From contig CM049311.1 in NCBI GenBank assembly GCA_026874595.1, forward strand, positions 71,654,453 to 71,718,452: DNA of 64,000 nucleotides, given 5' to 3'. Of this stretch, positions 1,662 through 38,812 are shown piece by piece. The notes below the pieces were generated by a model. That model worked only from the letters and a program-made list of their open reading frames with translations, made no database searches and was not told the origin of the DNA. The DNA is from Sipunculus nudus. Its lineage: Eukaryota > Annelida > Sipuncula > Golfingiida > Sipunculidae. A program made the translations under genes and the position numbers. Within the stretch, counting starts at the first letter, position 1. Every line of letters begins with the position of its first letter.

Positions 1662-1690
1662 AGCTCAGCTGACTATAAGTCATCTGAGCT
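1662..1690 (+). repeat. 5' terminal hairpin of P1 copy a
   Basis: The arms pair as 7 bp, one mismatch at position 8, 5 bp and a 3-nt loop. The same structure recurs at 8948-8976 and 10850-10878. Confidence 0.8.
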
Positions 1691-3409
1691 ATAGTCATTG
1701 TCCATTGTCCGTCGTCCTTCCATCTGTCTGTCCCTCCGTCCGTAGATGTGGCACATTTTGAAACCGTTAGACCAAGGAATCCAAAATTCAGCATAATGTT
1801 AGATGTCCCCAAGATCTCCTACCAAGCTGAATACTGGGTCTTTGTGACTTCATTCCTTTGAGAAATTAAGGAAAAACCTCAATTTTTTATTAAAAACCTA
1901 TTTTCATACTTCAGGACTGCCTAATATCAAAACCACTCATCTGTGTTTTTCTCATATTAACCATGAATATTCCTCTATATAGTTCCTACGTACATGCCAG
2001 AAATTAGGTCTGTATTATATAATTTAAAAAAGTTATGGGCTCAAACATAATGCATTTTGTAAAAATTCAGGAAAGATATTTGATCATTTCACACAAAACA
2101 TGTTACAGCTTAGGGTTTTACTGAACATGTTACAGCTTAGGGGTTTTTTTTCCAGTAATATAACTTTTATTAATCAAAATTAAATTGTATACACAAAATT
2201 AGATCAAAATCTTTTAATTTTTTTAAAATATTAGCAAAAATAAAAAAATTGGTACCTTAAATTTTGCCCAACTTTGACCATGGCACCTTTTTTTTTTTGT
2301 AAGTACATTTGATTTAATTTTCACAGCCAGTTTACATATGGATTTAATCTGATGAATTTTGAAATTCAAAAGTATAAGCTTAAAAAATAGTCTAGCTATT
2401 GAAGTTTTTAGAGGTCTTAATGTATTTGTATTTTCTAGCATCATGACCTCAGTTTTGTTTACTACAACTTTGCCTGGTAATCCAAACATTGGCAAAATGT
2501 TAGATGTCTCGAAGATCTCCTTCCAAGCCAAAAACTGGGTCTCTGTGACCTTTTTACTTTGAGAAATTAAAAATATATAAAAATCATTTTTACACTTCAG
2601 GAATGCCTAATATCAAAACCACTGACTTTTTTTCTTCATATTTTCCATAAATAATTGTGTATATATAACCTATGTTCATGCCTTAAATTAGGTCAGTTTA
2701 TATAATTTAAAAAAGTTATGGGCCCAAACATAAGCACTTTTAAAATTTTGCCGAACTTTTTTTTAAGTACATTTTATTTTAATTTTCACAGCCAGTTTAC
2801 ATGTGGATATAATCTGATGAATTTTGAAATTTGAAAGTATAAGCTTAAAAAATAGTCTAGCTGTTGAAGTTTTTTAGAGGCCTTAATGTATTTGTATTTT
2901 CTAGCATCATGACCCCACTTTTGTTTACTGCGGCTTTGCCTGTTAATCCAAATATTGGCATAATAATAGATGTCATAGTAAATATTCATATTCTTCCATA
3001 CATTTCCTATGTACATAACAAAATTAAGGTTGGTACTGCTTAATTTGTTGAAGTTATAGGCCCAAACATAATGCACCTTGTAAAAAATCAGGAAATATAT
3101 TTACTCTCTTAACATAAGAATTGCTGATGCTAGAGAATTTTTTCAGGGATATAACTTCATTTAATCAAGATTCAATGGTTTACCCAAAATTAGATCTGAA
3201 ATTTGCAATATTTTTAAGTTATTAGCATAAATATGAAATCAGTACCTTAAATTTTGCCCAACTTTGGGCATGGCGCTTTTTTTCCTGTAAGTACTGTGGA
3301 TTTAATTTTTACAGCATATACACATAAGGATTTAATCTGTTAAAATCTGAAATTTGAAAATAAAAGCTGCAAAATTAGGCTAGTCATTGAATTTTGTTGC
3401 AGGCTCTTG
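1662..3409 (+). mobile_element. Hairpin-ended repeat family P1, copy a (Helentron/pearl-like)
   Basis: The copy starts with a 29-nt imperfect hairpin (1662-1690; arms AGCTCAGCTGACT and AGTCATCTGAGCT, loop ATA) after a T run. A TGTCCGTC-rich pyrimidine stretch follows. The end is placed at CTTG (3406-3409) followed by T, by comparison with copy b at 8461-8464. It has no open frame. A segment of about 180 bp (2311-2490) is repeated at 2783-2960 and again downstream at 4334-4510. The design of terminal hairpin, tandem core and CTTG|T end resembles bivalve pearl-type and Helentron-derived non-autonomous elements; the class is inferred. Confidence 0.6.
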
Positions 3410-4510
3410 TTTTATTCCCTTACATTGTCAAGCAGTCCACTTTGGGCACTGTAGGTCATTCAGTGCAGCTCTCTATGCTCCCCAGGGTGTTCTTATATAA
3501 TCCCATCACTCAGGCAAGCCATCTCTCTTGTTGAGCATGATCAGGCTGCCTGCAGTTTATACCACAGGGAGTCTTTCTTCCCCCCCCCCCCCCCCATTCT
3601 GTTGACAGACCTGTACTATTAAAAAGATGAATCTTATAATTTCACATTTTTTTTAGCAATGAGCGGTAACAACTGAGACCCCTCCCCCCCCCCCCCCCCC
3701 CCCACTTCTTCAATACACAGGACTAATAAACAAGATGGATCTTATAATTTTAATGTTAAATAAATTCTTTTTGATGCGACTTGGACAATTTTGATTTTTT
3801 TAAAGAAAAAATTTCAAGAATTTAATCCTTATATTCAAATGTGATAAAATATTAGGAATTAATGTAAGTACTAACTGACAAAATTTAAGAAGACATAAAT
3901 ACTTTGTAGCATCTCATTCATATCTCTTAAAGTTGGCGGGGCCTAGGTGTGAATAACACTGTTAACTTAGTATTAAAATTAGGAATATTGGTCAAACTTT
4001 GTGGGATTAATTTTTAACTCATATTGGCATATATTTAACTTTTGAAAACTTAATTACCTTCACACATCATTTGTTTATGAAATGTTACTTTTATATAACA
4101 CTTACCGTAGGCCTATTTGTTCCCTTGGTGCATGACTACATGGTTTAGCTCATGTCCATTATTCTATAATTTACAGAGTTTCATTTTAGCGGGGCCATTT
4201 TCTCATATCTTTTCTAATGATAATATACATAGAAAAACCAAAAGAAATAAAAATGTTTTGCAGTTACTAATATTTTCAAAATTTCAGCCGAGTGATATGA
4301 CCCATGTTTCCCTTGTTTTTCGTAAGTATATTTAATGTATTTTTCACAGCCGGGATACATGTGGATTTTATCAGTTGAATTCTGAAATTTGAAAGTAAAA
4401 GCTTAAAAATTATTCTAACTATTGAAGTTTTTCAGATGCTCTAATGTGTTTGCATTTGGTATATCCAAGACTTCACTCTTGCTCACTTCAGCCTTGACTA
4501 GGTTACCTTA
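3410..4510. repeat. Sequence shared with 8465-8890, plus a degraded P1 core unit
   Basis: Both P1 copies a and b are followed by the same sequence (CACTTTGG, then a poly-C or pyrimidine stretch, then ATCTTATAATTTCA, then a GTGATAAAATA block). This indicates a duplicated block or insertion into a second repeat. Poly-C runs lie at 3580-3595 and 3684-3703. The part at 4334-4510 is a diverged repeat of the P1 core segment. No gene is seen. Confidence 0.5.
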
Positions 4511-4976: not shown

Positions 4977-5230
4977 GTGTGCATAATGTGATGTTACCTG
5001 ACTAAATTAAGTATAAGTGTTGATGCAATTTAGATTTGTGAATCAATTTAAATATTCAGATATATACGATATACTGTATATATATAGTAAAATTTATAAA
5101 CTTGAAACAATGACTTAAAAAAAAAGAAAAAAAAATAGGAACTAATGCAAATATTTGTTCATTATTTTCCTGTCTCAGTAGAATGGACATTAAAGTTATT
5201 TGCTTTGTTTTCACCTCTCTTCCTGTTCTT
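4511..5230. other. No gene; poly-C and (TA)n tracts
   Basis: AT-rich spacer with a poly-C run near 4585-4598 and an uninterrupted (TA)n tract at 4943-4974. The open frames here overlap on both strands and carry no recognisable domain. Confidence 0.5.
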
Positions 5231-5899
5231 ATGCCACCGCCACAAAGTGGCCGGGGCATATAGTTTTTTATGCCCCCGCCACAAAGTGGTCGGGGCATAT
5301 AGTTTTACCCATGTCCGTCATTCCGTCATTCCGAAATCAAACAGTTGTACGGACTTTTTTTTCGCAGTGCCTACAGATATTGGCCTGATTTTTGGTGTGT
5401 GGGCAGATAATGACCAGTTACAGATCGAGTTCGCGTTTCGTCCCGGTTGACCTACTTCTGACCGTTTTACGGCTCCTAAACTTAGAAAATTTCATGAAAA
5501 ATAGAAATTTTCATGACAAATACACATGTACGGACTTTTTTTCGCAATGCCTGCAGATATTGGCCTGATTTTTGGTGTGTGGGCAGATAATGACCAGTTA
5601 CAGATCGAGTTCGCGTTTCGTCCCGGTTGACCTACTTTTGACCGTTTTACGGCTCCTTAACTTAGAAAATTTCATGACTAATACACATGTACGGACTTTT
5701 TTCACAGTGCCTGCAGATACTGGCCTGATTTTGATGTGTTCCTTGATAATGACCCTTTACAGATCGAGTTTGCATTTTGCCCTTGTTGACCTACTTTTGA
5801 CCATACAACACTTCCTGAACTTAAAAAAATTTACAAAATTTAACAAATGTTTCTAATTTGCCCCAGGCGGGGGCATTCGTGTCGTTCCAACACATCTAG
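5231..5899 (+). mobile_element. Hairpin-ended repeat family P2 (Helentron-like)
   Basis: The element begins with two tandem copies of a 29-nt hairpin (5231-5259 and 5270-5298; ATGCCCC outer arm, CCAC/GTGG inner stem, AAA loop). TGTCCGTC follows. The core holds three diverged units starting near 5346, 5527 and 5689, with spacings of about 181 and 162 bp. The 3' side has a GC stem (GCCCC...GGGGGC) and a GTGT...ACAC stem, and ends in CTAG (5896-5899) followed by T. No protein is encoded; the open frames are artefacts of the repeats. It shares architecture but not sequence with families P1 and P3. The Helentron-like class is inferred. Confidence 0.6.
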
Positions 5900-6633
5900 T
5901 TAAATATATAAAAATAATTCCATTTATGTCAAATTTTATCCTTTACGTATATGCAGAGGTGCTGGTACTCCCACCAGTGCCTGTAAGCACCATTGAATTC
6001 AATTCCGTATTATGTATTTAAATCCAAAGGTGCTGAAACTTAACCCCCCCCCCCCCCCCCCCATGTACATGTGAAGCGTCGGTGAAAAAAAAACTATACA
6101 TGTTCCATGTTTTCAGCGTGTAACGATAAAGGCATGGTGTAAAACCTAGGGACGACCGGTGACGCATACATTAACGAAAAGAATATATTCACAAATGTGT
6201 CATTTCCTTTGAAATAAAGTGCATGTTTAACGACGAAAAGGAAAAAGGGGTTACCGGTATGACACGTATATACCTCTCATGTATCTAATATATAGGTTTC
6301 CTTACCAGTGTTGATACGTAAAATATTTGTATATACATGTATAGTTAAACCTGGCGGCACAGGGAAATGACAGTGGCATTGATATCAAATGACCTATGTT
6401 CTAGGATTAATGACGGATCCAAAACGCAAGGAAAAGTTTAGCCACAGGCGCTTGAATCCCTATAAATATGATATGTATGGTTTTTCAAGGTATATATTGT
6501 GTTAAAAGTATTTTAAAGCGGTTTCAGACCATTGAGTTTGAATACTTTTCCCTTTTCTGAAAGAAATTTTCATTCAAAAAGGGGAGAAGTATACAGGCAC
6601 ATAGGTCTTAAGTCGCATGATATTACTATTTAG
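5900..6633. other. No gene recognised
   Basis: Non-coding spacer with a poly-C run near 6043-6062. No coding frame, RNA gene or repeat boundary is identifiable. Confidence 0.45.
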
Positions 6634-8464
6634 CTCAGCTGACTAAATGTCCGTCGGCTGTCCGTCTGTCTGTCTGTCCGTTCGTTAAACTGGTACGTTT
6701 TGAAACCGATGGACATACGAATTAAAAATTCGGCATGCACTTAGATGTCCCTGAAATCTCTTCACATACGGAAATATCGGGTTATTTGGACTTTGTTCCT
6801 TCGAGATATAAAGGAAAAAGCTCAATTTTCCATTGAAAAGCCATTGTTACACTTCAATACTGCCTTTTATCAAAACCACTGATCTTTTATTGATCATATA
6901 AAATATACATATTCCTCAGTTTACAGTCAAGCCCACTTAGTGTCATATCGGTTAACTGAAAATCCCGTTTATTGTTACATAAAACAAAAATCCCAAACCA
7001 TTTACTATATGTACAATGATAAATCTGACCGTTTAATATCATGGAATATTGTCATAACCCGTTTATTGTCATGTTTTGAACCTTTGGCATTACCATACCA
7101 GTTCGCAGTTAATATCACATCAAACGCCGACACGAAGATCAATGAGGCCAAGAGCTTGTAATAGGTCAGGCTTGTCAAACAATTTCATCTAGCTCCTGTG
7201 AGCGGCAGGCAAGTGCAGTGATGCATGCGGGTCACTCACCGGCACTTGGCAAATTTATGTCTTAAAAATCTACGTTTATCCAGATCATGTTTCTTCGTAC
7301 GTTAACAAGGGCGATGTTTTCGATTTCATGCCATACACGATGAATTCCTGACCTTTGCTAGACCGCAGTTTACACCTCACTGACGTTTCGCCGAGATGAT
7401 ATGAAGCACAAGCTGTTAACGGTGTTTACGGCTGTAAATCTCCTTTAAAGTTCCACGAAACGGTGGAAACGTACTGAGAGCACTGGAAGCGATACCCGAT
7501 CCAAAACCTTAACAGCCGTGAAACTTGACAATCGTTTGACGATGCCCGCTGTCCTATCATAAAGACGATCATGGAAATTTCGGTCAATTATAAAACATCC
7601 GGAAAATAAGATGGAACAGTCAACAGGGAAGTGCAAGAATTATCTAATAAAATAGTTTGCCTTCGCGTATGACGTTATAACTTTGCTGCATATTTCCAGA
7701 CATTTGACCTCGTGACCCAGACGCTACGTCACTTTCTGTTGGCAAATCGGATTTTGGTCAATTATTGTCACATACGGCACAAAAGTAACAGGAAATAAAT
7801 TTTTTAGATGCGCATGAAAGTAATTTGATATGCCGTTGTGCAAAAATATTATAATTAACGTTTCTGTTTCCTTTTTATTGACGATTTATTTTATATTAAT
7901 GTGAGACATAACGCTTATTCTATGACTCAAAGGACATCGATGTCGAAGCCCGCATAATATCACATCCCGGTTATTATCATAATATAAGCATGAACCATCG
8001 ACATAACAATAAGCGCACTCGACTGTATTTCCTATGTACATACCAGAAATCAGGTCAGTATTGTGTAATTTCTTGAAGTTATGGGCCCAAACATAATGTA
8101 CTTTGTAAAAAAATCAGGATGTATATAGTTGCTTAATTTACATGAAAATTGTGGGAGATGGAAATTGTTTTCAAGGATGTAACTTTATTTGATCAAGATT
8201 CAATTGTATACCAAAAATTAGATCCAAATTTTGCAATTTTCAAAGTTATAAGAATAAATATAATATCATTACCATAAATTTTGCCCAAAATTGACCACGG
8301 CACCCCCCCCCCCCCCCCCCAGTATGTACTGAGGATTTTTTTAATTTTTCACATCATGTATATATAATCATTGAATCTGTTAAAATCTGAACTTTTAAAT
8401 AAAATCTCAAAAATGAGGGTAAATGTAGTTTGATTTTTTTTGAGGGGGGGGGGGGGGGCTCTTG
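6634..8464 (+). mobile_element. P1 repeat copy b, split by an inserted TIR element
   Basis: It begins with the P1 start (AGCTCAGCTGACT) but the right hairpin arm is degraded. It ends with CTTG (8461-8464) followed by T. The body matches copy a on both sides of a 1,102-bp insertion (6924-8025): about 6840-6921 corresponds to about 1895-1970, and 8028-8115 resumes at about 1985-2065. A poly-C tract (about 8304-8321) and a poly-G tract (about 8444-8458) lie near the 3' end. No gene. Confidence 0.6.
6924..8025. mobile_element. Pogo/Tc1-mariner-type non-autonomous TIR element
   Basis: The left end CAGTCAAGCCCACTTAGTG and the inverted right end (CAGTCGAGTGCGCTTATTG read from 8025 backwards) are imperfect terminal inverted repeats starting with CAGTC. 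TA lies on both sides (6922-6923 and 8026-8027), the target duplication of Tc1/mariner-pogo elements. There is no transposase frame, so it is non-autonomous. It sits inside P1 copy b, and the P1 sequence continues on both sides, which makes the insertion younger than that copy. Confidence 0.75.
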
Positions 8465-8947
8465 TATTCACCGGGATTGTCTAACAGACCACTTTGGTCA
8501 CTGGAGATCATTCAGAACAGTCATCTCTGCTTACCTTATCTGTTAGCCATGCACCAAGCTGGGCTTGTTAGGCAAGGTACTTGGGCAGCTGCCTGATTCC
8601 AGGTCGCGCTGCCTGAAGTGAGCACCCCCTCTGACAATTTTTTCTCTCTCTCTTTCTCTCACTCTCTCCATCCCACCCCTTCCAGGTGACAGGTTAAAAA
8701 AACAAGATGCATCTTATAATTTCATATTATCTTTTGGTTCTCTTGATGAATTTTTTATATATTTTTTTAAAATAAATTTTCAGGTTTTGCTACATCTTCA
8801 GTCAGTCAATCCTATGCTGTACATATTGCAAATTTATAATTTTTAATTATTAAAAAAGTGATAAAATATAAGATTTTGATAACTATTAGTTGACACAATT
8901 AATAATGGCAGTAAGATACTTATCCTCATTAACAATCCTGTTTTTTT
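8465..8947. repeat. Repeated flank between P1 copies
   Basis: The first part matches the 3' flank of P1 copy a. The last 80 bp (8868-8947) is nearly identical to 10766-10849, so the 5' flank of copies c and d is duplicated with the element starts. A CT-rich tract lies at about 8642-8680. Confidence 0.55.
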
Positions 8948-10620
8948 AGCTCAGCTGACTGTAAGTCATCTGAGCTATAGCGATCACCCTTTGTCCGGCG
9001 GCCGTCTGGCCGTCCGTCCGTTAACAGGACACAAATCGTAACCGTTAGACCTAGAAACTTCTAACTGTACATCCAGGGAGGTCCTTGGAAAAACTCCTTG
9101 GAAACCTCAAAGTAGGTCATGGTGACCTATATTTTGAGACCTACGGACCGAAAACATGATTTTGAGCATCCAGACAGTCAGACGGTGCACAAATTGTATC
9201 CATTAGGCCTAGAAACCTTTAACAGGACATTTTGGGAGATCCTAGGCAAATGTCCTTGGACACCTGAAACTAGGTCACTTTGACCTATATTCTGGGAACT
9301 ATAGGGAAAAGATGTCATATGAGCACCCTGAATGTTTGATGGAGATAATCGTATCTTGAAGGCCTAGAATCTTCTAACACAATATCCTGGGAGTTTCTAG
9401 GCAAATCTCCTTGGAAACCTGAAATTAGGTCACGGTGGCCTATATTTTATGACCTAAAGGCTGAAAACAAGGTTTTTTAGCATCCAGACAGTCAGACAGG
9501 GCACACATTACATCAATAAGGCCTAGAATCCTCCAACGTGACATTAAGGGAGGTCCTAGGCAAATCTCCTGGGAAACCCAAAATAAGGTCATGGTGACCT
9601 ATATTTTGTGACCTACGGGTCGATAACTTGATTTCAGGCACCTTGAATGTCAGATTGGGACAAATTGTATATGTGGGGCCTAGAATCTTCTATCTCAATA
9701 TCCTGGGAGTTTCTAGGCAAATCTCCTTGGAAACCTAAAATTAGGTCATGGTGACATATATTTTGTGACCCATGGGCCTAAAACAGGATTTTGAGCACTA
9801 AGAAAGTCAGATGGGGCACAAATAGTATCCATTAGGTCTAGAATCCTTAAACATGATATTGAGGGAGGTCCTAGGCAAATTTCCTTGAAAACCTGAAATA
9901 AGTTCGCTGTGATTTATATTCTGCGACCTATAGGAAAAGGATATATGAACACCCTGAATGTCAGATGCTGACGAATCGTATCTGTTAGGCGTAGAATGTT
10001 CTTACACAAATTCCTGGGAGGCTCTAGGCAAATCTCTTTGGAAACCTGAAATAAGGTCATGGTTACCTACATTTTGTGACCTACAAGACAAAAACCTGAT
10101 TTTGAGCCTCCTGAATGTCAGATGGGCACAAATCATATCTGTTAGGCCTTGAATCTTCTAATGCATCATACTTGGAGGTCTTAGGCAAATCTCCTTTGAA
10201 ACCTGAAAATAGGTCATGGTGACCTATATTTTGTGACCTACAGGCCGAAAACAGGATTTTGAGCACCCAGGAAGTCAGACAGGTCACACATTGTATTTGT
10301 TAGGCCTAGAATCTTCTAATGTTACGTTCTGAGACGTCCTCGGCAGAATTCTGTGGAAAACTGAAATTAGGTCACTATGACTAATATTTGCGACCTTCAG
10401 GAAAAGAAGTCATATATGCACCCAGACAGTCAGTCAGGGCACACATTGTATTTGTTAGGCCTAGAATATTCTAATTTAACATTTTGAAACATCCTTTGCC
10501 AATATCCTTGGAAAACTTAAATTAGGTCAACATGACCTATATTTTGCAACCTATCAGAAAAGATGTCATATCAGCACCCAGACAGACAGGGCACAAATTG
10601 TATCCAGTAGGCCTTTTGAA
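8948..10620 (+). mobile_element. P1 copy c with tandem core array of about 157 bp
   Basis: A complete 5' hairpin (8948-8976) is followed by TGTCCGGCGGCCG and then about ten tandem units. Each unit carries the landmark TAGGCAAATCTCCTTGGAAAC or a variant, near 9080, 9240, 9395, 9555, 9710, 9870, 10020, 10178, 10335 and 10490. Units near 9395 and 9710 share GTTTCTAGGC, while those between carry GTCCTAGGC, so a dimeric higher-order period of about 315 bp is visible. The 3' terminus is not seen; sequence changes near 10620. No coding capacity. Confidence 0.7.
9035..10615. repeat. Tandem array, about 157-bp monomers, alternating dimer pattern
   Basis: This is the internal array of P1 copy c, described from the regular recurrence of AGGTCA(T)GGTGACC and CTTGGAAACCTGAAA blocks. 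Confidence 0.75.
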
Positions 10621-10849
10621 TACGGGATGCATAAATCATAAAGCTGAATGTCACAAGTAAACACGCATTGTCCCTTATTTTGCCTTATTGTTATTATAAT
10701 CTCGCACCGACGAGACTAGAGTCAAAGTGAGGCTGAGATACTGAAAGTCCATATTTTCCCTTTAAAATATAAGATTTTGATAACTATTAGTTGACACAAT
10801 TAATAAAGGCAGTAAGATATTTATCCTCATTAACAATCCTGTTTTGTTT
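10621..10849. other. Junction and duplicated 5' flank of P1
   Basis: A short unique segment (about 10621-10765) is followed by 10766-10849, a near-copy of 8868-8947. Confidence 0.55.
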
Positions 10850-11304
10850 AGCTCAGCTGACTGTAAGTCATCTGAGCTATAGCGATCACCCTTTGTCCGG
10901 CGGCCGTCTGGCCGGCCGTCCGTTAACAGGACACAAATCGTAACCGTTAGACCTAGAAACTTCTAACTGTACATTCAGGGAGGTCCTGGGAAAAACTCCT
11001 TGGAAACCTTAAATTAGATCATGGTGACCTATATTCTGCTAGCTATGGACCAGAAACATGATTTTGAGCACCCAGACAGACAGGGTACAAATTGTATTCA
11101 TTTTCCTTTGAACCCTGTATTGTGAAATCCAAGGGGGTGCTGGGCAGGTCTCCTATGAATCCTGAAATTTTTATTTTCTGTCCATTTTTTCAACAATGTA
11201 ACTTTAGCCACAGGCTAATCTCACAGACAATATATAACATTAATAAAAAAAAACATGAGCACCCAGTCGAAATTAACTGAGCGTCATGGCCCATGGGCCA
11301 CTTG
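10850..11304 (+). mobile_element. Compact full-length P1 element (copy d)
   Basis: This 455-bp copy has both ends: the 5' hairpin (10850-10878) after a T-rich run, and the 3' palindrome TGGCCCATGGGCCA (11287-11300) directly followed by CTTG (11301-11304) and TTTT. Only about one core monomer lies between, so it approximates a minimal unit of the family. It encodes no protein. Confidence 0.7.
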
Positions 11305-12905: not shown

Positions 12906-13145
12906 ATCTTAAGGCAAACTTACAGCGCCAACGACTATCTGCCTATACTGCTGCACCAGAAGATAAAGCTACTTCTTTGTCCGACTTGAGTCCACCCATA
13001 GAAGGATTGATGTAGCGCATGGATATCGCTAAGCATCTGGCCGTCCTGGATAGATCTGCTTCGCAAACAAGAAGGCGTATTCAGTAAGAATGAAGATGAT
13101 ATCGGATTCTGTGACTTAGTTACACATAGGATACCCACTACTGAT

Positions 13146-13702
13146 GACGTACCAGTGAGGTTTCCACACCGAAGTGTTCTACCTAATCAGTGTGGAGAAG
13201 TAAGAGTATTTATTGGGACTGCTTTCAGGAATCGACAAACCCGAATGGCTCTCAGAGGGGCTGCAAATTTCTGTAGCTTAGGTTTAGCTCATGGACTTTA
13301 TCAAATACCGGTAGATGAGGTTGACCGTCACAAAACATCATTCAGGCCTGGCACCGCAGGATTGTACGAATTTTTCCGGTTGCCTAGGGACTTTGCCCGG
13401 TACTTTTATGAGGCTGATGGACCGGATATTCGGGGATCAGAACTTCAGACTATCTTGCACTACCTGGATGATATGCTAATGTTTGGGTCGACCTTCGATG
13501 AGATGTTAGAGCACATAGACGTAGTTCTAACCCGCCTTGGAGAACATGGCTTGAAAGTCAAACCTGAAAAGTGCAGTTTAGGCCATCTCGTGTCAGTTAA
13601 AGGAATTGCTCCAGACTCTGACATGCTAAGACCGATACAAGAATGGGAAGTCCCCAAGACTGAGCACCAGCTAAGAAGCTTTCTTGGATTAGCTAGCTAC
13701 TA
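13146..13702 (+). pseudogene. Reverse transcriptase fragment
   Basis: A 182-codon open stretch (13155-13703) includes the catalytic YLDD box (about 13458-13469, in HYLDDMLMFG), a downstream HGLKVKPEKCSLG block and SFLGLASY at the start of the connection region. The domain is shortened: between DFARYFYEADG and the YLDD region part of the fingers and palm is missing compared with intact gypsy elements. Confidence 0.8.
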
Positions 13703-14290
13703 ACGCCAGTTTATTAAGGGATTTGCAAGCATTGCTGCCACACTACTTAAACTTCTGAGAGGCTGTAAGAGAAGTAAGAAGCGGCAGCACTTATCCAGAA
13801 GCATTACTGAGAATGGACCCCAGAATATCAAGAGGCATACGGCGAGTTGAAACAGAAACTTACAGCATCGCCAGTGCTTGGACATCAAGACTTCTCTTAA
13901 CCGTTCATAGTGGAAACTGATGCCTGTATGCAAGGCCTGGGAGCTGAACTCGCACAACACCAAGGAGATCAACGTGTTGCTATAAGCTATGCCAGCCGCG
14001 GTCTTCTGAAAGCCGAACGAAATATGGATAACAATAGCAGCCGCAAGCTAGAACTATTGGCTTTGAAGTGGGCGATCATTGAAAAATTCCGCGATATACT
14101 CCTGAGTCAGAGTTCACTGTATATACGGACAACAACCCACTATGCTACCTTCAGTCTACAGCCAGGCTTCAATTTAAGGTAAAGTACAGGCCAGGGAAGA
14201 ACAACACTGTTCCTGATGCCCTAAGCCGAAAAGAGAGCCATGGAAAGGAGCCCTTGAGCGTAAGATTCGAAACCATCTCCGCTGACTCTG
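13703..14290 (+). pseudogene. RNase H-like fragment
   Basis: A 90-codon open stretch (13910-14182) contains VETDACMQGLGAELAQ and YASRGLLKAERN, typical of the RNase H domain of gypsy pol. KYRPGKNNTVPDALSR follows in another frame. Stops before and after confirm decay. Confidence 0.75.
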
Positions 14291-15640: not shown

Positions 15641-16220
15641 AAGATTTTTAATAAAACTAGAATGAGATACAGGGAGAAAAGAAAGGAAGGAGAGAAAGCC
15701 TTTTACTGTATTCTTAAGATTCGAACGCTATAGATGTACATGCAGCACGGTCTAACGGCATTCTTTTACTCCTTTTAATTTACCAAAAAAAAATACGGCC
15801 ATATTACATAAGTTAATTTGGATACTGTAAGAATACAAAATGTAAATTATATTACTTGAATGTTCCATTTATTAGAAATAACTTTAATATATTATATTTT
15901 AACTATCATTATATATTTTCTGTAAATCATTTAAAAACCTTGACTAAGATAGAAAAAGATACTTTTCTAAAAGATAATCTAAAAGAGACTTGAGCTAAAT
16001 AACAAGTTAATTTCGTGAAAATATTATAGCAAACTGTCCCTATTTTCTGTTATTTCCACTATTATCGCTCATAAAACGTCAATCGTGAACCAAATAAGGT
16101 AAAACGAAAACAAATCATAGAAACTAAATTTTGAAATTTCTCCGCAACTGGTATAACATTCAGTAAATTTTGGTCAAATCACACAGATCTAATATACTAC
16201 AGCATGAATCTTCCCGATAT
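15421..16220. repeat. Low-complexity spacer with inverted copy elsewhere
   Basis: A (GA)n tract lies at 15600-15637. The block 15490-15780 (with GTGCTAATTGAGCAGAT and CTTAAGATTCGAACG) recurs inverted within 22560-23070. The rest (15790-16220) is AT-rich with nothing recognisable. Confidence 0.55.
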
Positions 16221-16221
16221 T

Positions 16222-18333: not shown

Positions 18334-18336
18334 GCG

Positions 18337-19210: not shown

Positions 19211-19213
19211 GTA

Positions 19214-19217
<4 letters not shown>

Positions 19218-19252
<35 letters not shown>
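19218..19252. repeat. (TA)n tract just inside intron 1 donor
   Basis: The uninterrupted dinucleotide tract begins seven bases after the GT of the exon 1 donor. Confidence 0.95.
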
Positions 19253-19257
<5 letters not shown>

Positions 19258-24239: not shown

Positions 24240-25640
24240 TATATGATTTCGCCTTAAAAATGTAACATACGAAAATGTTTTTGGCCACTTATGTACCCTA
24301 CTACTGAATGTTCCTTTAAAAAAACTTTTTTTTCAGGATATTATGGGTACAAAAAGCATATTTAAATATTTAGGCATATCCTTATGTACTAATATGTTTA
24401 AAACATCATTCAGCACAAATCCATATACATATTTAGAATTAGTTTGTAAAATTTTGCAAGATTAGACACAATAAACATTGATGGACAAGCATTTCAAATT
24501 TTGGAGAAATGCCATCTTCAGTGTCTTTTGCTTCATAGCTTTTGCAGTTTTCAACATATCTGCAAGATCTTTGTATCATTAGACTTTAAAGAACATTTCA
24601 ATTGCAAAGATTATAAATATGACCGTATGCATAAAAAAAGGAGAAGCTATGTACATATCTGTTACCCCTAGCCCTTATATATATATGTGAGACAGTTTGA
24701 ACCATGAACTTACAGGACCATCAGCCGGAGAATGCATACAGCTCTCGGGAATTTCCATAATCTCACTAGCTGGCTGTTTTAAGGTGTCCTTTGCCCGTTT
24801 CAAGGTGTTTCAACACATATAAATGCTGCAAAAATCTAGAAAGTCAACTTTTTTTACAAACCGCGTCCTCAATTTGAAAACTTTCTTTTTTCTGGCGCGA
24901 CTTTCGAGCGGTTTAGACCATAACTTTCATATTGTACACATTTTAGGTGCACAATTTTTGACATCAATGCAATCAGGAGAACATAAGCTTTATAAAGATA
25001 TTAAATTTGGCTTTAAAAATTATATGTAAAAATTCTTTGGCCACTTTTGAACCCCTACCCCTTACTTTTTCTTGAACATTTACATTTTTCAAAGCATATT
25101 TGGTGATTTAGCCATATCCTTATATATCCTCTGAATATGTTTAAAGCATCTCTCAGCACAAATGCATATACATTTTTAACATTAATTATTCAAATATTCA
25201 TCAAGATTTGACAAAATAAACAGTCATGAACAGGCAAGTCAAATATTTGCGAAATACCATCTTCACAGTGTCTTGTGCATCATAGCTTATGTAATTCTCA
25301 ACATATCTGCAAGATCTAGGTATCATTAGGTTTTTAAGAACATTCCAATTACAATGATATAAATATGATCATGTACATGAGAACAAAAAGAAGCAATGTG
25401 CATATCTGTTACCCTCTACCCCTAAAATATGAGGCAGTTTGAACCATGAACTTGCAAGGCCTATGGCCGGAGAAGCCTACAGCGATCAGTAATTTTCATG
25501 ATCCCACTAGCTTGCTGTTTAAAGGTGTCCCATGCCTGTTTCCTGGTGTTTCAAAACATAAAATTAAAGAAAACACCTAGAAATTCAATTTTGGCAAAGA
25601 AATACTCAATTTTAAAACGTTATCTGGAGTGACAGCGCGC
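24240..25640 (+). repeat. Two direct copies of a repeat of about 0.7 kb
   Basis: The blocks GGCATATCCTTATGTACTAA, CAACATATCTGCAAGATCT, GGCCGGAGAA-like, AAAGTCAACTTTTTTTACAA and GGCGCGACTTTC occur once in 24240-24930 and, diverged, again in 24930-25640. Reverse-complement copies of the same blocks lie at 26711-26960, 27650-28170 and 28170-28970. Confidence 0.7.
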
Positions 25641-26710
25641 CAGTATAAGCATCAACATAAAATAATTGACACAAATAGAACTTGGATTACATTACTATAT
25701 AATAATACCGTTCAGAACATTAATATCCCTAAAATCCTGAATTTTTTATCCCTCGAAGTTATATCCTGCACATGTGCTCTTTATACCAAAGGCATATTTA
25801 CAAAAGTGCATTTCGTTCTGTATCCCAAAATATGCAAAAAAAAAAAACACACAAAAAGCAAATATATTTTCAGCCATATTCTTTTAACTATGTCCATGAT
25901 TAACACTGAAAATCTTGTATTTGGAGTAAGATCTTCTTGTGATTGAAGTTGCAGGAAGTTCTGAAGTATCTACTGATATAATTTATTGATAAAATGTTTA
26001 ATCCTAAAAATGCAAAAATATAAAAAAAATACTCAGATGGTACGACCTACCGTCAAGTATAAATTACTGGGTCTTAACTCAAGCTTCCGTGAACTTCACA
26101 ATGTTAAAGTTTTATATATGGATGCCGTACTATTCAATTAACTTTAAACTTGCTGAAAATTATTCTAATGAGTTCAGGGTTCAAAACATGTTATTGATAT
26201 TAAAGGGTTAGAGATTAGTACAAAACACTTATCTTTTTCTTCCTCTACATTTTATTCGTCATACATGTTTGCAATAAATTACAATAGTTCCTACAAATCC
26301 AAAAACACAAAAATCTGGCACTTATATTGATATGTGTGTGTGTGAAACAAAAAACAATATCTAAACAACCCAGCTCCATTGTTGTCAAATGTAACCTTAA
26401 TTTATTAAATGGTGTTATTTTGCATAATCTATAGGCAACTATGATGAAAAATCCAAATGTATTTGTGCTATTTGAGATAAAAGAACGATTAAAATTTAAA
26501 TACGCCTTTGGTATAGGCGCAAATGTTAATTTTAAGGGTAATAAATTCATGATTAGAGGATACAAAATGGCCTCAGAATTAAAATATATATGATTTCCTC
26601 TGAGCAAAACAGTAATTATTATAAAGTAATTTTCTTTTTATTCTATTTTTTTTTCAAAATAATGCAATGTTGATACATAATAATATTTATAAGGGATAAT
26701 TTTCCATATA
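25641..26710. other. Centre of the intron 1 inverted-repeat cluster
   Basis: Imperfect symmetry continues inwards: TATACCAAAGGCATATTTA (about 25780-25800) has an inverted match near 26495-26515. No gene is seen. Confidence 0.45.
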
Positions 26711-26960
26711 CAAGCGCAAAGTCACTCCAGATAATGTTTTTTTAATTGTGTAGTTGGTTGCAAAAAGGAGGATTTCAGGGTGACTGCTCTATTTATATGT
26801 TTGAAAACACCATGAAACGGGGAAAGGATACCTTTAAACAGCCAGCTAGTCTGATCATGAAAATTCTTTAGCGCTGTAGGCTTAGTTCATGCTTCAAACG
26901 GCCTTATGTTTTAGGGGGAAGGGGTAACAGATATACACATACACTCCCGAGGCAGCGGAA
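26711..26960 (-). repeat. Inverted copy of the intron 1 repeat (partial)
   Basis: AAGTCACTCCAGATAATG matches the reverse complement of about 25618-25636, and CCGTTTCATGGTGTTTTC-type sequence follows in inverted order. Confidence 0.6.
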
Positions 26961-27640
26961 ATCTTGCGCTTCTAAAGAAGCAACTGATTTTCACGCTGCC
27001 AGCTTTGACCGTTTATGATATATTTAGACACCAGATGGCGGTTCGTTGTCTGCTGAAAAGACAAACACTCGACAGGCATCCTGGCTCCGTCCATAGCTGC
27101 GCTTCAAGCGCCGCTTGATGAGTTTACGGTCGAATTTTAAGTGCTCCCTCTGCATTCTCGCATCATCGACCCATTCGATTATGACATAATGAATGTGTTA
27201 GCGTAGCAATGTATCTGGTGTCTGCAGAACTGAAACCAGCCAGCGAGGTGTGCACGCAGCCTTTGTTGTTACGTTTCGTTTGAATTTCAGCTCACCGGCC
27301 GGGCATCCTATGTGCCCAAGGCCCTAAGCAAACCACGTCTCGGGCAATTCTCTCTGAGCCTGTGGCCTGTTCAGTCGGTTACCGGGGCGATGAGCTGTCA
27401 ATCAAAACGAAATGAACATGATTGGCTCCGTGTATTCCTCGCTTGGCAGTGTCTTCCAGCACAAGGTCTCACCTGATTGGACAAAAATACAGTGCTCCCC
27501 TCTGGTGTAGCAATTCAGGATACGAGGTCATAACAAACAGCGCTTACGATATAGGTACTAGGCCTATAGTTAAAGCGCTGTGTAAAGAGCGTAATATACA
27601 CATAGCTCCTGTTGTTCTCATACATATCATCATATTTATT
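26961..27640. other. More GC-rich segment within the inverted-repeat cluster
   Basis: The segment interrupts the repeat copies and is visibly richer in G+C than its surroundings. It could be an inserted element, but I found no terminal repeats or coding domain. Confidence 0.4.
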
Positions 27641-28970
27641 ATTATTGCATAGGAATGCTCCTACAAATCCTATGATACCAAGATCTTGCAGATATGTTGA
27701 GGTTTGCAAAAGCTATGAAGAAAAAGACACTTTGAAAAGTATATTTCTGCAATTATTTAACTTGCTTGTCTATGATTGTTTGTTGTGTTTAACCTTTCTA
27801 AATTTGGAAAACTAATGCTAAATATGTATATGCAATTGTGCTTAAGGATGTTTTCAGGATATTCAGATATCAGGATATGCCTAAATCCTAAAATATACCT
27901 TTTATACTCATAATATCTGGAAAAATATTTTTTTTAATTTTCAAGGGGTATCGGTACAAAAAAGGCCCAAGAATATTTACATGTTACATTTTCAAGGCCA
28001 AATTAAATATCATTATAAAGGTAAAGATTTTCTAATTCCGTTGATGCCAAAAATGTGCAATTATTATGTACAGTAAGGAAATTTTGGTCCATAAAACCCT
28101 GTAAAGTCGCGCCAGAAAAAGTTTTTCAAATTGAGGACGCGGTTTGTAAAAAAAGTTGACTTTCTGGGTGTTTGCAGCATTTACATGTATGAAAATACCT
28201 AGAAACGGGTAAAGCACACCTTAAAACAGCCAGCTTATGAGATCATGGATATTCCCGAGAGCTGTAGGCTTCTCCGGCCGATTCAAATTCAAACTCATGA
28301 TTCAAACTGTCTCATATATAACAGATAGGGGGTAACAAATATGCACAAATAAGCTTCTCTTTTTTCTCATGTTTATGATCATATTTGCCATCATTGATAT
28401 TGGAATGTTCCTACAAATCCAGTGATACCAAGATCTTGCAGATATGTTGAGAATTGTGAAAGCTATGAAGCAAAAGACACTCTGAAGATGGTATTCCTGC
28501 AAAATTTTGTTTGCTTGTCCATGACTGTTTTCTTAGTGCCTATTCTTGCAAAATTTTGAAAGCTAATACTAAATATGAATATGTATTTGTGCTAAGTGAT
28601 GTTTCAAACATATTAAGACATAAGGATATGCCTTTATCTTTAAAATACGCCTTTTGTACACATACTTTCTGAAAAAAAATTATTTTTTAAAAGAAAAAAA
28701 GAGAAAAATTGAGGGGTAGGGCTAGAAAAGTGGCCAAAGAATTTTCACATGTTACGTTTTCAAGGTCAAATTATATATCATTACAAAGCTAATATTCTAC
28801 CAATTTCATTGATGCCATAATTGTGCACTTATGATGTATAATAAAAATGTTATGGTCCATAAGCCGATGGAAAGTCGCAACAGAAAGTAAAGTCTTCAAA
28901 TAGAGGACGCGGTTTATAAAAAGTTGATTTTCCAGGTGTGTGCAGTATTTATATGTTTGAAAAAACCTGG
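27641..28970 (-). repeat. Two inverted copies of the intron 1 repeat
   Basis: Reverse-complement matches to the 24.24-25.64 kb copies are clear: CAAGATCTTGCAGATATGTTGA occurs near 27680 and 28430, and GTCGCGCCAGAAAAAG with GAGGACGCGGTTTGTAAAAA near 28105-28150. The second unit ends near 28970, about 120 bp before ENPP exon 2. Confidence 0.7.
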
Positions 28971-29088
28971 AAATGAGTAAAAGGACACCGCAAGAAGAAA
29001 GAAAACTAGGGGGTCCCGAAAATTTCACTTTCTAGACCATGGACTATCAGCAGTCGTGATCCATGCATTCTCTTTTGTTTTGTTTCAG

Positions 29089-29329: not shown

Positions 29330-29994
29330 TAGTCAACGGCTGGAGATAGAATTACTAAAACGGTCCATATCCGTCCTTCCGTCTGTCCCAATCCATTCTT
29401 GTAACAAATAACATTACCCAGCGGGCACATGGAATGTTTTATCGGTTCCTGCAGACTGGTGGTGCCACTTGTATTTTTTTCGGATGTTAACACGTTTTTC
29501 TCTATTTTTCAGTCTGGCTGTAAACAGGCCACAAGCTGTGTCGATTAGACCTGGAATCTACTAACTGTACATCCAGGGAGGTCCTACTCAAATCTCCTTG
29601 GAAACCTTAAATGAGGTGGAAGTGACCTTTAATCCTCAACATATGTTAAAGAACATGATGTGAGCACCCTATAGGACAGATATGCATGATTTGTTTTACA
29701 TTTGGATCTAGAAACGTCTAATTTGATGAAGATCCAAGGAGGTTCCTGTAAATATTTCTTGAACACCTGAAACAAGGTTACTGTGACCTATAATCTGCAA
29801 GCTGTATGAAAGACACGATTTAAAACTCTGTTAGTCAGATGGCCACAAATTGTAGCAGCTAGATGTAGAATAAGGTCACTGTAAACTAAATCTAAGGTCT
29901 GTTTGCAAAATGCATGATTTTGCGCACTCTGAGTCATTTAACCCATTGTTCAAGGTTCCTTGAATTCAGCTGAGCGTCATCGCCCATGGGCCAC

Positions 29995-29997
<3 letters not shown>
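29330..29997 (+). mobile_element. P1-related repeat copy e (decayed 5' end)
   Basis: A TCCGTC-rich start is followed by P1 core units (ACATCCAGGGAGGTCC, CTCCTTGGAAACC). It ends in the GCCCATGGGC palindrome and CTTG (29994-29997) followed by TT. The 5' hairpin is not recognisable. It lies in ENPP intron 2. Confidence 0.6.
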
Positions 29998-30312: not shown

Positions 30313-31436
30313 TAGCTCGGCTGACTATAAGTCATCTGTCCAACCCAACTCATCTAGTATTTGTTTTGAAAAACAACATAACATTAAACAATAAATTAAT
30401 ATTTTTTTTATTGATTTTTAATTACAAATTGAAGAAAATTAATAAAAAAAGGAATTTGTTAGTTGATGAGTAACAGAAAATTAACTTGCAGTTACTGATG
30501 ATGTAAGAATCATGTATGGATGGATAGAATGTCAATGTCAATGTTATTCCAAATAACACCATGCAGTCACCTATGGTATTTTTCAGTTAAATTTTAATGA
30601 TAAAAAAATAAATCGTATTTTTCATTACTAATCATTAGGGATCATATGAAGGAAATTAATGATAGACAAAGATGCAGCTGATAATATTAATCTAGATTCC
30701 TACTGTGTCTAGTGTGTAGATTGATGTGTAAGTAGTCCAAAGTGAATATATTCCATTTATTTCTTTTTAATATAAATAAAAGCCATAAAACCAGGTACTT
30801 ATGATCATTATTTAAATTTGTAAATTTTGTATATTCTGGATTCATCATTGTTTGGCTGAAACTGAATAAATACTAAACATGGTGCGAATGATTTGCAAAT
30901 GTATTTGAATCGAATATGAATATATACTGCATTAAACAATTTTATTGCATAAGAATGGGAATTCAGGTAAAAATGAAAGTATTTGAATACCAGTGAAGAT
31001 ACTTTCAAAATGTATTCATGAATGCATTCATGAATATATTCTATAATATTGTTTCAATAATCATTTCAGTTATTTTTTATTTTAAAAAATCATATGATTT
31101 TCTTATTGTTTGTTTTTTAATAGAAATTATATTGGCATAATATTTGTTATTAAATTTTAATAAATAGTTAAACTCTTAAATTAGAAGTACTGCTTATAAG
31201 TTAAATGGCCAAGTCAAAATCTGTGTGACAATAGCACTCCATTTGTTAATAAAATAAATGAAATCAATCCTCTTCCCTGTCTTCAAAGATACTATCAAAA
31301 TCATACATAAGCTAAACACCAACAACTCATAACAAAGCTTATATTTATTACCACACAAAACCAGCATGTGCCTCTTTCCAAAATTATATTTTTTATTATA
31401 TGTAACAGCTGAGCGCCGTGACCCATGGGTCCCTTG
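30313..31436 (+). mobile_element. P1-related repeat copy f
   Basis: The start AGCTCGGCTGACTATAAGTC resembles the P1 hairpin, whose right arm is cut short. The end is CCCATGGGTC and then CTTG (31433-31436) followed by TT. The interior lacks the 157-bp core and is AT-rich. It lies in ENPP intron 2. That the two ends belong to one insertion is inferred. Confidence 0.45.
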
Positions 31437-31980: not shown

Positions 31981-33581
31981 CAGACATGGGGTAATAGTAA
32001 TAAGTAATAGTAATAGACTATTACAGCTTTTTCCATGTAATAGTGATAGTGATAGTAATAGTAATAGTAATAGTAATAGTAATAGACTAAAAAAATTTAG
32101 CTGTAATAGTAATAGTAATAGAAACAGGAGGCAAAGTAATAGAGTAATACATATTACTTTCTATTACTTCCTGTGAGCCCCTTGATCATAAAGCATATCA
32201 GCAAATAATGCTCAACAGACTCATTTTTGTCCAGTGATTACCCAGGATGTGCCTATTGTTGAGGTAAGCATGGGCTAGCTGCCACATTGCTGGTGACCAC
32301 TGGTGCTAATTACATAAGAGTACTGGACAGAGCAGGTCTAGGCCAAATAAGTAACCTGGCACAATCTGACCTTTGATTACTAAACCATGGATAAACAAGA
32401 GACATGTTTGATGTCAAGAGACAGATAATAAGTGTACATCTTATCTCACATCCATCAATCCATATACATATTCTGAAATGTACCTAGACAAGTTTTTACC
32501 AGCCTGTTTGCATTTTAATAATATAGATTCCAAAATCTAACATTCAAGCAAAATTTAATATGGCACCAGATACAGTGGTGTTTTCACCACCCATAAAGTA
32601 TTGAAGCCTACAATGCTATAAACTCGTACCAGTACTACAATAATCTAAATAAAGTCATACTACAGGCATATGTATTATCTAGTTAATTTATATACATATT
32701 CTTTTAAAACCATGCATTCTTTTAATATATTGTCTGTTATTTCATAGTACCAATTTTGCAGACCTTCATTCAGTGTTATTTCATAGTACCAATTTTGCAG
32801 ACCTTCATTCAGTGTCTAAAATTATGTTAATTCATATTTTGAAAATTAAATGAACCATTTTTCATGACATTAATTAATTTGATTATAAAATATGAGAATA
32901 TAAGTAACTGTTAATATTTTATTATTTAATAAATGAAATTTTGATATCAAATAATTAGATCATGTTATGTACAAAATTCAAAGTACAAGATTGTTTAATA
33001 CCAAATTTATTGTGAAAGTGATTTAAATAATATTTTATTTGATTTGTAAAATTGATGTAAGTTTTAATATCTAGATACTCAATAATAATTGGCAATAATC
33101 ATGAATAATTCCTCTTAAGTTACACTGAAAATCTTTATTAATTAGGAGAATGAAGAAAATGGAAGTATGTACTACAAAATAAATTTATGTGAAATATATA
33201 AGAAGACAAAATATACAAGTATGCATATAATTAATAATCAATATTTTACATCTTGGCTGCGTAAGGTCTAGAATCCTCCCATCAGTTTTAGTAATAGTAA
33301 TAGTTATAGTAATAGTAATAGATACCAGAGTTGGGTCCAAAAGTAATTGTAATTGAAGTAATTGTAATTACAATTACTTTTTCAAGTAATTGTACTTGTA
33401 ATCGATTACTTTTTTAAATCCTGAAAAGTAATTGTACTTGTCATCAATTACTTTTCAATTACTTTCAAGTTCTGTGTAAAATGTGAGAGTAATATACAAT
33501 TACAGCATTCAAAGTGACGGTATTATTAAATGTATAAAAAATCTTTTATCGTTTCAAAGTACACAAAGCACAATGCTCATA

Positions 33582-36481: not shown

Positions 36482-37356
36482 AGAATTGAGTGTCATATAA
36501 ACCCCTGCGAGGGTTGGGTACTATAAGCAGACATTTATTATATTTTTCATGTATTATTGTACATGACACTATAATAAATAAACTCATACATATGTAATTA
36601 TTTACTATGGTGTAAAACTAATGGAGTGACAATAAATAAATTTTATAACTACTTAACGTTTTAACAATAGATTATATTGCTCGAATTCATTCTAGACAGT
36701 GATGAGAATAGAGAATCATATTTACATAAAAGTCATATAAACAGTCATATTTATGGGAAGGTTGTTAATATAGTTGACAATTCAATTGTTTGATAATTAA
36801 TGCTTAATTTTATTAACTTGAAAATACCTTGCACCACTATTTGACAGATAGTATTTATATGTAACATTTTTTGTTATCATTAAGTAAATTAAAAAGTCTC
36901 ATTCAAAATTAGTTTGTTATTAAGTTAAGTAATAAAGTAATGTCACTTAAAAGTAATAGATGAGAAACTGTGGCAATAGTAAATTTGTAATAGCAATAGC
37001 AAAATAATAAAATAAAACTAAAAGTTATGTTTACATTAAAAATTGAACTAAACCCAACCCTGATGAGTATGTTAACATTTTTTTAGACTAAACATCCAGG
37101 AGTCAGCATGAGCAGAGAACTGTGGACACGAAACAAATATCAAATAAAGTGTAATAATTTTGGAAAGACCCATGCTCAAATTGTAGAGAGTGCATTCACC
37201 ACTGTGTGATGCATTTTTGTTATCAGATTTTGATATGTGTGTTTATTGAAAATAAATATGTAATACCAAGTTGTTTTTTGTCACTATCACAATGTTAATC
37301 CCCTGAAAGCACAAAAGTAATTGCAAAAGTAATTCCAATTACTTCAAAAGGTATTT

Positions 37357-38812
37357 GTATCCGCCAAAACAGAGTTTTGCGGATACTATGTTTTCAGCTG
37401 CACGCCGCCGCCGCCGCGTAGGTGTCCGGAGAACTCCTCCGTAACCGCTGGGTGGAATTTTACGAAACCCGGGATTATGTTCGGGTCACATGTGAACTGC
37501 TGCGCCCCGATTTTGTTTTGACCTCTGACCTTTCCTCTGCGCTCTGCGTCCGTTTGTGCGTCTGTTTCCACACATAAACCCACATATCTTGGGAACCGTT
37601 TGACCGATCAGGAAATTTTTTTTTGCACAAATGTAGCCCTTGGAGAGCTTTATAACATACACAAAAAATGGTGGCGCCACCTGCATCCATGTTTGCACAG
37701 TGTCCATCTGTTCGTCTGCCTTGGGTTAAACTCATTCATATCTCTGCAGTGACTTGAATAATTCACCTGAAATTCGGCATGCGTATACATCCTGGATAGC
37801 TTTTCTGATTTTATTACAGGTGGCGCCACCTACATTCACGTGTCTGCAGACATCCAAGCTCATATCTCGGGAACCGTTTGACCGATCAGGAAAATTTTTT
37901 TTGCACAAATGTAGCCCTTGGAGAGCTTTATAACATACACAAAAAATGGTGGCGTCACCTGCAACCATGTTTGCACAGTGTCCATCTGTTCGTCTGCCTT
38001 CGGTTAAAATCACTCATATCTCTGCAGTGGTTTGACTAATTCACCTGAAATTCGGCATGCTTATACATCCTGGATAGCTTTTCTGATTTTATGACAGGTG
38101 GCGCCACCTACAATCAATTTTACGCTGCAGACATCCAAGCTCATATCTCGGGAACCGTTTGACCGATTGGGCCAAAATTTTGCATGTGTATAAATCTCCC
38201 ATAGCTCTTTATCATACGTAAAACTGGTGGCACAACCTGCAGCCATTTTTGCACAGCTCCCGTCTGTTTGTCTGCCATGGGATAAAATCACTCATATCTC
38301 GGCAGTGGTTTGACATATCTGCCTAAAATTTTGCAAGTTTATACATCCCCGACAGCTCTCTTGATTTTATGACAGGTGGCGCCACCTGCATTCTAGTTTA
38401 TGCAGCAGATATCCAAGCTCATATCTTGGGAACCGTTTGACCGATTGGGCCAAAGTTTTGCATGTGTATAGTTCTCACATAGCTCTTTATCATACGCTAA
38501 ACTGGTGGCGCCACCTGCAACCATTTTTGCACAGCGTCCATCTGTTTGTCTGCCAAGGGCAAAAATCACTCATATACATGTAGTGGTTTGACTTATCTGC
38601 CTTAAATTTTGCATATGTATACAACTTGGACGGCTTTCTGGATTTTGTGGTAGGTGGCGCAACCTACATACACAATTTGGCTGCAGACATCCATGCTAAT
38701 ATGCAACACTTCACTCTATTTCCCCTTGCCACTCAATCCATGCCTCACTTCATCCGTTCCACTCTGATTTAGGCGAATACACGTAGTCGCTTGTCGACTA
38801 CCCGTATTCTAG
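37357..38812 (+). mobile_element. Hairpin-ended repeat family P3 (Helentron-like)
   Basis: It starts with a 30-nt hairpin (37357-37386; outer arm GTATCCG/CGGATAC, inner AAAAC/GTTTT, loop AGA). A core of about 280-bp units follows: CATATCTCGGGAACCG recurs near 37582, 37861, 38142 and 38420. Each unit contains two halves carrying the palindrome GGTGGCGCCACC. The 3' side has an imperfect stem (GAATACACGTAGTCG / CGACTACCCGTATTC) running into CTAG (38809-38812) followed by T. No coding capacity. It lies inside the second TIR element of ENPP intron 3. Confidence 0.7.

What the first reader, a model, noticed from the sequence alone, without database searches (positions are those of the whole stretch)
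1662..38812. Three unrelated repeat families share one 5' hairpin geometry
Hairpins at 1662-1690, 8948-8976 and 10850-10878 (P1), 5231-5259 and 5270-5298 (P2) and 37357-37386 (P3) have different sequences but the same plan. Each has 7 paired bases, an interruption at position 8 (mismatch in P1 and P2, one-base bulge in P3), about 5 more pairs and a 3-nt loop, total 29-30 nt. All are followed by ATAG or TATG and a TGTCC-rich stretch. All have tandem cores (about 157, 162-181 and 2x140 bp) and a palindrome before a CTAG|T or CTTG|T end. Structure conserved without sequence suggests recognition of a folded single strand by a replicase or recombinase, as in Helentrons.
Basis: partly seen in the sequence, partly recalled or inferred. 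Interest (0 to 1): 0.75.

Follow-up and report, generated by a model that had tools for sequence, protein, structure and literature searches.

The report
Helentron-type transposon ends with hairpin
These repeats are non-coding hitch-hiking jumping elements of the Helentron kind, present in thousands of copies in this animal genome, and the shared hairpin at their front end is the published anatomy of such elements with one small regularity, an unpaired base at the same place in several families, that I did not find described.

Summary
A blind scan of the window finds 5 of the 6 named hairpins and one other. In P1, P2 and P3 the outer stem is 8 pairs, not 7; then one interruption, 5 pairs and a 3-nt loop. 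Genome copies show the hairpin is terminal, next to a T-run. The 3' ends carry a complement of the 5' arm, a palindrome and CTAG|T or CTTG|T. This is the published anatomy of Helitron2/Helentron elements and their non-autonomous HINEs, reported in oyster and Drosophila. The genome also encodes an open OTU-Rep-Pif1-endonuclease Helentron frame, but I could not link its ends to P1-P3. What may be new is narrow: in P1, P2, P3 and a further family, P5, the interrupting base is a C at arm position 9, and the 3' complement has G there, so end-to-end pairing runs through the site where the local hairpin breaks. P2 copies that restore the pair are rare but not depleted against a control substitution, so a function of the interruption is unproven. 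New members of a known kind.

The parts
1661..1691 (+). P1a 5' terminal hairpin (8 pairs, C.T at base 9, 5 pairs, loop ATA); 3' end of P1a not found
   Evidence: copies; 3' end in 0 of 8 loci
1692..1745 (+). P1a GTCC/GTCK-rich stretch
5230..5260 (+). P2 extra tandem copy of the 5' hairpin, with an added mismatch at position 6
5269..5299 (+). P2 5' terminal hairpin (8 pairs, C.C at base 9, 5 pairs, loop AAA)
5346..5831 (+). P2 tandem core (159-180 bp units)
5866..5876 (+). P2 3' subterminal inverted repeat, complementary to the 5' arm through base 9
5879..5893 (+). P2 3' palindrome (decayed by one base against the consensus of genome copies); element end CTAG|T at 5899
6631..6645 (+). P1-type 5' arm whose hairpin 3' arm is missing
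8947..8977 (+). P1b 5' terminal hairpin (loop GTA)
9031..10553 (+). P1b tandem core, 157 bp x 9.7
10849..10879 (+). P1c 5' terminal hairpin; local duplicate of P1b with its flank
11274..11282 (+). P1c 3' subterminal repeat (A, not G, opposite base 9)
11287..11300 (+). P1c 3' palindrome TGGCCCATGGGCCA; element end CTTG|T at 11304
29512..29997 (+). P1d: P1 copy without a recognised 5' end; 3' subterminal repeat TCAGCTGAGC at 29966-29975 pairs through base 9; ends CTTG|T
30314..31436 (+). P1e: decayed P1 5' hairpin at 30314 and a P1 3' end (CTGAGC at 31409, CTTG|T at 31436); that the two belong to one element is inferred
37357..37386 (+). P3 5' terminal hairpin (8 pairs, bulged C, 5 pairs, loop AGA)
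37583..38702 (+). P3 tandem core, 278 bp x 4.0
38769..38780 (+). P3 3' subterminal repeat (one base decayed against the other 17 copies whose 3' end was found)
38775..38809 (+). P3 3' palindrome; element end CTAG|T at 38812
33338..33455 (+). Related sequence without insertion, aligned across the P3 junction (paralogous empty site, low-complexity AT-rich)

Best explanation
P1, P2 and P3 are non-autonomous Helentrons (HINEs), mobilised in trans by a Helentron RepHel-endonuclease made elsewhere in the genome. The Rep (HUH) nuclease is taken to nick at the T|hairpin boundary and at CTAG|T or CTTG|T and to copy the element by rolling circle. The 5' arm has two alternative partners: its own 3' arm, giving the interrupted 8+5 hairpin, and the 3' subterminal repeat, giving a helix that runs through base 9. 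I think the interruption keeps the local hairpin weak enough to be displaced by end-to-end pairing when replication reaches the 3' end, a form of the termination switch that Bao and Jurka proposed in 2013. Shown: terminal position, both complementarities, T|T junctions, copy numbers, a Helentron frame in the genome. Inferred: trans-mobilisation by such a protein, nick sites, switch role.
For: Hairpins next to T-runs in fetched copies: P1 20, P1a 7, P2 29, P3 29 (at least two P2 pairs share flanks). 3' ends with the 5'-arm complement: P2 13 of 30 loci, P3 18 of 30, window copies included; of the complete ends CTAG in 11 of 11 P2 and 15 of 17 P3, each followed by TT. Twelve P1 3' ends, 11 with G opposite base 9; P5, G opposite base 9 in 4 of 4, each repeat with 1-2 changes (by eye). 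Paralogous empty site for P3. Hairpin 30/31 identical between P1a and P1b against 58/88 just downstream. P1 copies with the pair restored fold at about -15.2 to -15.5 kcal/mol against -10.6 (DNA parameters). Exact-pattern counts: P1 18,053, P3 3,121, P2 2,446. Frame open for 2,250 codons with OTU, Helitron_like_N, PIF1 and Exo_endo_phos.
Against: No autonomous element with P1-P3 ends was found; about 14 kb around one Helentron showed no such hairpin and its ends were not reached. Pair-restoring changes are not rarer than a control: P2 partner 15 G against 20 A (all 35); P2 base 9, 14 G against 5 A among 100 listed of 222; dead copies have little power here. P1 copies with a perfect stem exist (L095, L134), and the 6631 copy lacks the 3' arm. 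P1a 3' ends were not found in 8 loci. Fusarium Helitron2 ends print an uninterrupted 5' stem. P4 has its bulge on the other arm.
Confidence: 0.82

Rival explanations
1. The interruption is a protein recognition feature: the Rep HUH domain reads an extrahelical or mismatched base in a folded single strand, as E. coli TnpA-REP reads the bulge of its REP hairpin.
For: Unpaired base at the same place in P1, P2, P3 and P5; bulge required for E. coli TnpA-REP activity.
Against: No depletion of pair-restoring changes among P2 copies; P4 has its bulge on the other arm at position 7; no binding data.
Confidence: 0.3
2. The interruption means nothing: the local inverted repeat is only a partial copy of the 5' arm, each family had a mismatch by chance and copies keep it by descent.
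For: DINE-1 IR is described as partial and/or interrupted; neutral-looking substitution spectrum; fetched copies were picked by similarity; P2, P3 and P5 arms may be distantly related (by eye).
Against: Same position and same base (C, in the 5' arm) in four families; P5 came up with a GTCY anchor that set no hairpin shape, as well as by shape, though in loci fetched through P3.
Confidence: 0.45
3. The hairpins are a by-product of MITE-like cut-and-paste elements with short inverted repeats (the old reading of DINE-1 and pearl).
For: Short subterminal inverted repeats, no long frames in the elements.
Against: 3' repeat is clearly internal, ends asymmetric; by eye no target duplication beyond T's at the P2 and P3 junctions read.
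Confidence: 0.03

Closest known systems
Cg_HINE elements of Crassostrea gigas (PMC7492417; passages and section 7 read)
   Same: 5' subTIR plus complementary IR, GTCY/GTCC/GTCK microsatellite in several, satellite-like core, 3' subTIR and palindrome, TT insertion, no TSD
Helitron2 (Bao and Jurka 2013, PMC3627910; passages read)
   Same: 5' ATIR pairs downstream to make a 5' hairpin; 3' ATIR lies before the 3' hairpin; end-to-end pairing proposed to break the hairpin
   Different: No constant interruption mentioned in the passages read
DINE-1 of Drosophila (PMC2374699; passages read)
   Same: 13-bp subTIR, partial or interrupted IR, GTCY microsatellite, central repeats, 3' stem-loop, TT insertion
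   Different: Different sequences; has a conserved core of about 90 bp
REP/TnpA-REP of bacteria (PMC8266576; passages read)
   Same: HUH enzyme reads a hairpin with a bulge in mid-stem
   Different: Analogy only; bacterial, no tandem core

Membership tests
HINE / non-autonomous Helentron | 5' subTIR with adjacent complementary IR (5' hairpin) at or near the 5' end | tested here: met
HINE / non-autonomous Helentron | 3' subTIR internal to the 3' end, complementary to the 5' one | tested here: met
   not found for the P1a subtype (0 of 8 loci)
HINE / non-autonomous Helentron | 3' palindrome after the 3' subTIR | tested here: met
   weak in the window P2 copy
HINE / non-autonomous Helentron | Insertion between T and T without target duplication | tested here: met
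   T-rich 5' flanks and TT 3' flanks in 28 of 28 complete P2 and P3 ends, read by eye; one paralogous empty site, for P3 only
HINE / non-autonomous Helentron | No coding capacity, central tandem repeats | tested here: met
   longest stop-to-stop frame there 127 codons, in the P1a region
HINE / non-autonomous Helentron | Autonomous Helentron sharing the same ends | tested here: inconclusive
   Helentron frames present; ends not reached
Canonical Helitron (Helitron1) | 5' TC, 3' CTRR, A|T insertion, no 5' hairpin | tested here: not met

The most novel reading that the evidence does not exclude
Helentron 5' ends share a fixed geometry, 8 pairs, one unpaired C of the 5' arm at base 9, 5 pairs, 3-4 nt loop, across families unlike in sequence, with a G in the 3' subterminal repeat opposite that C, so that base 9 is where the local hairpin and the end-to-end duplex differ: a built-in strand switch or HUH recognition mark.
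Probability: 0.25. Interest if true: 0.6.

Novelty: new member of a known kind. Interest (0 to 1): 0.35.

Why it matters
If the base-9 rule holds in more families it gives a concrete, testable handle on how Helentrons mark their 5' end and stop replication, which is proposed but, to my own knowledge, not shown. It would also give a compact search key for Helentron-type elements. Otherwise the finding is a clean example of known anatomy in an abundant repeat set.

Tried and rejected
Pattern scans of prokaryote and virus collections for the hairpin: 49 stretches, judged chance by eye from the match and the 40 bases after it; two further scans found none. Rfam (gathering threshold) and tRNA scans of the window: nothing. 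Paper searches for the end sequences: nothing relevant. Link to an autonomous element: one open Helentron frame and flanks of a near-identical second copy compared over a span of about 14 kb, the middle not compared, without reaching ends or finding the hairpins. P1a 3' ends by the P1d end: 0 of 8 loci. Reading the interruption as maintained in copies: not supported. MITE and canonical Helitron readings rejected on end structure. Not done: P1 base-9 transversion spectrum and a whole-genome count of P1 3' ends (service did not answer); P2 partner C to T count. Literature: searches did not turn up a fixed interruption position for Helentron 5' hairpins, by listings and the passages read; supplements and figures were not readable.
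Full report
What is there. A blind scan for the claimed shape found 5 of the 6, plus one inside the P1 core, and 19 of 20 dinucleotide shuffles of the window gave none. The shape was taken from the claim, so this says that such hairpins are rare, not that the shape was predicted. With the outermost pair counted, the stem is 8 pairs in the three families, then one interruption, 5 pairs and a 3-nt loop: C.T in P1, C.C in P2, bulged C in P3 (base 8 or 9, which cannot be told apart).

Are they the true ends? Yes, for the copies read. P1a and P1b start to match each other 6 bases before the hairpin, and the 6631 copy shares only the last T's. Genome-wide, the matches to P3 begin at query bases 4-16, at or before the T-rich bases next to the hairpin, most P2 and P1b matches likewise, and 85 fetched 5' ends (P1 20, P1a 7, P2 29, P3 29) differ upstream apart from T-rich bases (at least two pairs of P2 loci share flanks and so are duplicates). 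3' ends were found in 13 of 30 P2 loci and 18 of 30 P3 loci, window copies included; the others were not reached within the fetched stretch or lack that end. Of the complete ones, CTAG stands in 11 of 11 P2 and 15 of 17 P3, followed by TT in each. For P1a no 3' end was found in 8 loci, but 12 P1 3' ends elsewhere in the window and fetched loci end CTTG, 11 of them before a T. One sequence in the window (33338-33455) aligns across the P3 junction with a 2-base gap there, a paralogous empty site, though AT-rich. The 8947 and 10849 copies share their upstream flank and count as one insertion.

The 3' partner. P1, P2 and P3 have, before a 3' palindrome, a sequence complementary to the 5' arm. In P2 it is GGCGGGGGCAT, in P3 TTTAGGCGGATAC in 17 of the 18 copies found (the window copy is decayed), in P1 CAGCTGAGC. 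The base opposite position 9 is G in P1 11 of 12, the exception being the window copy P1c, in P2 13 of 13 and in P3 18 of 18 (by eye; a looser fuzzy count for P2 gave 18 G, 1 A, 2 T of 21). So the 5' arm can pair with the far end straight through the base at which its own hairpin is broken.

More families. Two scans of the fetched loci, one by shape and one anchored on GTCY-rich stretches without a shape limit, turned up P4 and P5. P5 (GTCCCCCG-C-TTCCT-TGGA-AGGAA-CGGGGGAC) is a repeat with 42 matches, 40 of 1,591 candidates scored. In 24 copies read, the hairpin lies at T-rich flanks, base 9 is C in 23 and T in 1, and many copies have decayed stems; L154 has a deletion in the arm. Four 3' ends carry the complement, each with 1-2 changes, with G opposite base 9 in 4 of 4, a short AT palindrome and CTTG|TT in 3 of 4 (by eye). 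P4 (6 pairs, bulge on the 3' side, 6 pairs, 4-nt loop) lies inside P2 copies, in 13 of 30 P2 loci. P4 breaks the rule: its bulge is on the other arm at position 7.

Is the interruption kept? In the 85 copies it is open in 84; L134 has a G-C pair there. These copies were chosen by similarity, so descent explains much of this. Of 8 further P1 copies met in the flanks of fetched loci, 7 keep it (sorted by strand by eye). Whole-genome exact counts: P1 with free bases at 9 and its partner 18,053; of the roughly 100 places listed all but three are C.T, two are C.A and one C.C, none paired. P2 with C.C 2,446. P3 with or without the extra base 3,121, every listed place with the C. For P2, copies with base 9 not C number 222; of the 100 listed 81 are T, 14 G, 5 A, and 18 form a Watson-Crick pair. 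Copies with C at 9 and A or G as partner number 35: 20 A, and 15 G, the G restoring the pair. Restoring and non-restoring transversions do not differ (14:5, p 0.06, the direction being against selection for an open base; 15:20, p 0.50). Since inserted copies are mostly dead, the test cannot exclude a role in active elements, but it gives no support for one. Between P1a and P1b the hairpin is 30/31 identical against 58/88 just downstream (Fisher p 0.0003), which speaks for constraint on the end as a whole.

The likely machine. The genome holds 143 Helitron_like_N matches, some of them pieces of one locus. One locus, L143, has a frame open for 2,250 codons with OTU, Rep, PIF1 and endonuclease domains, the parts published for Helentrons. 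A relative (L142), 85.6% identical over the frame, has a near-identical copy on another chromosome, 99.35% over 4.3 kb upstream and 99.36% over 2.7 kb downstream, the middle not compared; the shared stretch spans at least 14 kb and its ends were not reached. No P1-P3 hairpin lay in what was read. The partnership is therefore unproven.

What is known. Bao and Jurka 2013 (passages) describe the 5' hairpin made by the 5' ATIR with downstream bases, the 3' ATIR before the 3' hairpin, compensatory changes, and the idea that ATIR-ATIR pairing breaks the 5' hairpin to end replication. Yang and Barbash 2008 (passages) describe a partial or interrupted IR and a GTCY microsatellite in DINE-1. Thomas 2014 (passages) ties such elements to Helentrons. 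Vojvoda Zeljko 2020 (passages and section 7) reports eleven oyster HINEs with the same layout. P1-P3 and P5 are further members. Recalled, not tested: the Drosophila melanogaster DINE-1 5' end, whose printed subTIR is ATACCCGTTACTC, also folds in my memory of it with a break at about base 8 and a 3-nt loop; common oyster elements likewise.

What may be new is the constancy of base 9 and its relation to the 3' repeat. P2, P3 and P5 arms resemble one another faintly, so they may not be independent, which would weaken the case.

Noticed in passing
6918-8025: Insert of about 1.1 kb inside the P1-type copy that starts at 6631, with CAGTC-like inverted ends and possible TA duplication (by eye); looks like a Tc1/mariner-type MITE.
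   Followed up: no
13 of 30 P2 loci, e.g. L096 minus 1778: P4, a HINE 5' end lodged inside a P2 subfamily behind the same P2 sequence in most of these loci, so probably a nested insertion that then spread with its host.
   Followed up: partly
L142, L144-L146: Helentron region of at least 14 kb with direct repeats on both sides of the frame (alignments of about 70 to 770 bp) and a 69-bp coding repeat near its N-terminal end; flanks 99.35% identical on two chromosomes.
   Followed up: partly
5229-5306: The P2 5' hairpin is tandemly doubled (39-bp unit), so this copy has two 5' ends.
   Followed up: partly
62837-63601: Tandem duplication of 382 bp, 99.7% identical: very recent or an assembly artefact.
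   Followed up: no
24187-28989: 1.2-kb inverted repeats about 75% alike, with internal direct copies.
   Followed up: no
43006-45078 and 51533-52463: Repeat family in opposite orientations, 77-84% alike over the longer pieces.
   Followed up: no
16217-16889: 74-bp unit repeated 9 times.
   Followed up: no
18307-19374; 48593-49777; 59305-60588; 13011-13703: Frames matching type I phosphodiesterase/pyrophosphatase, two LRR proteins and a reverse transcriptase.
   Followed up: partly
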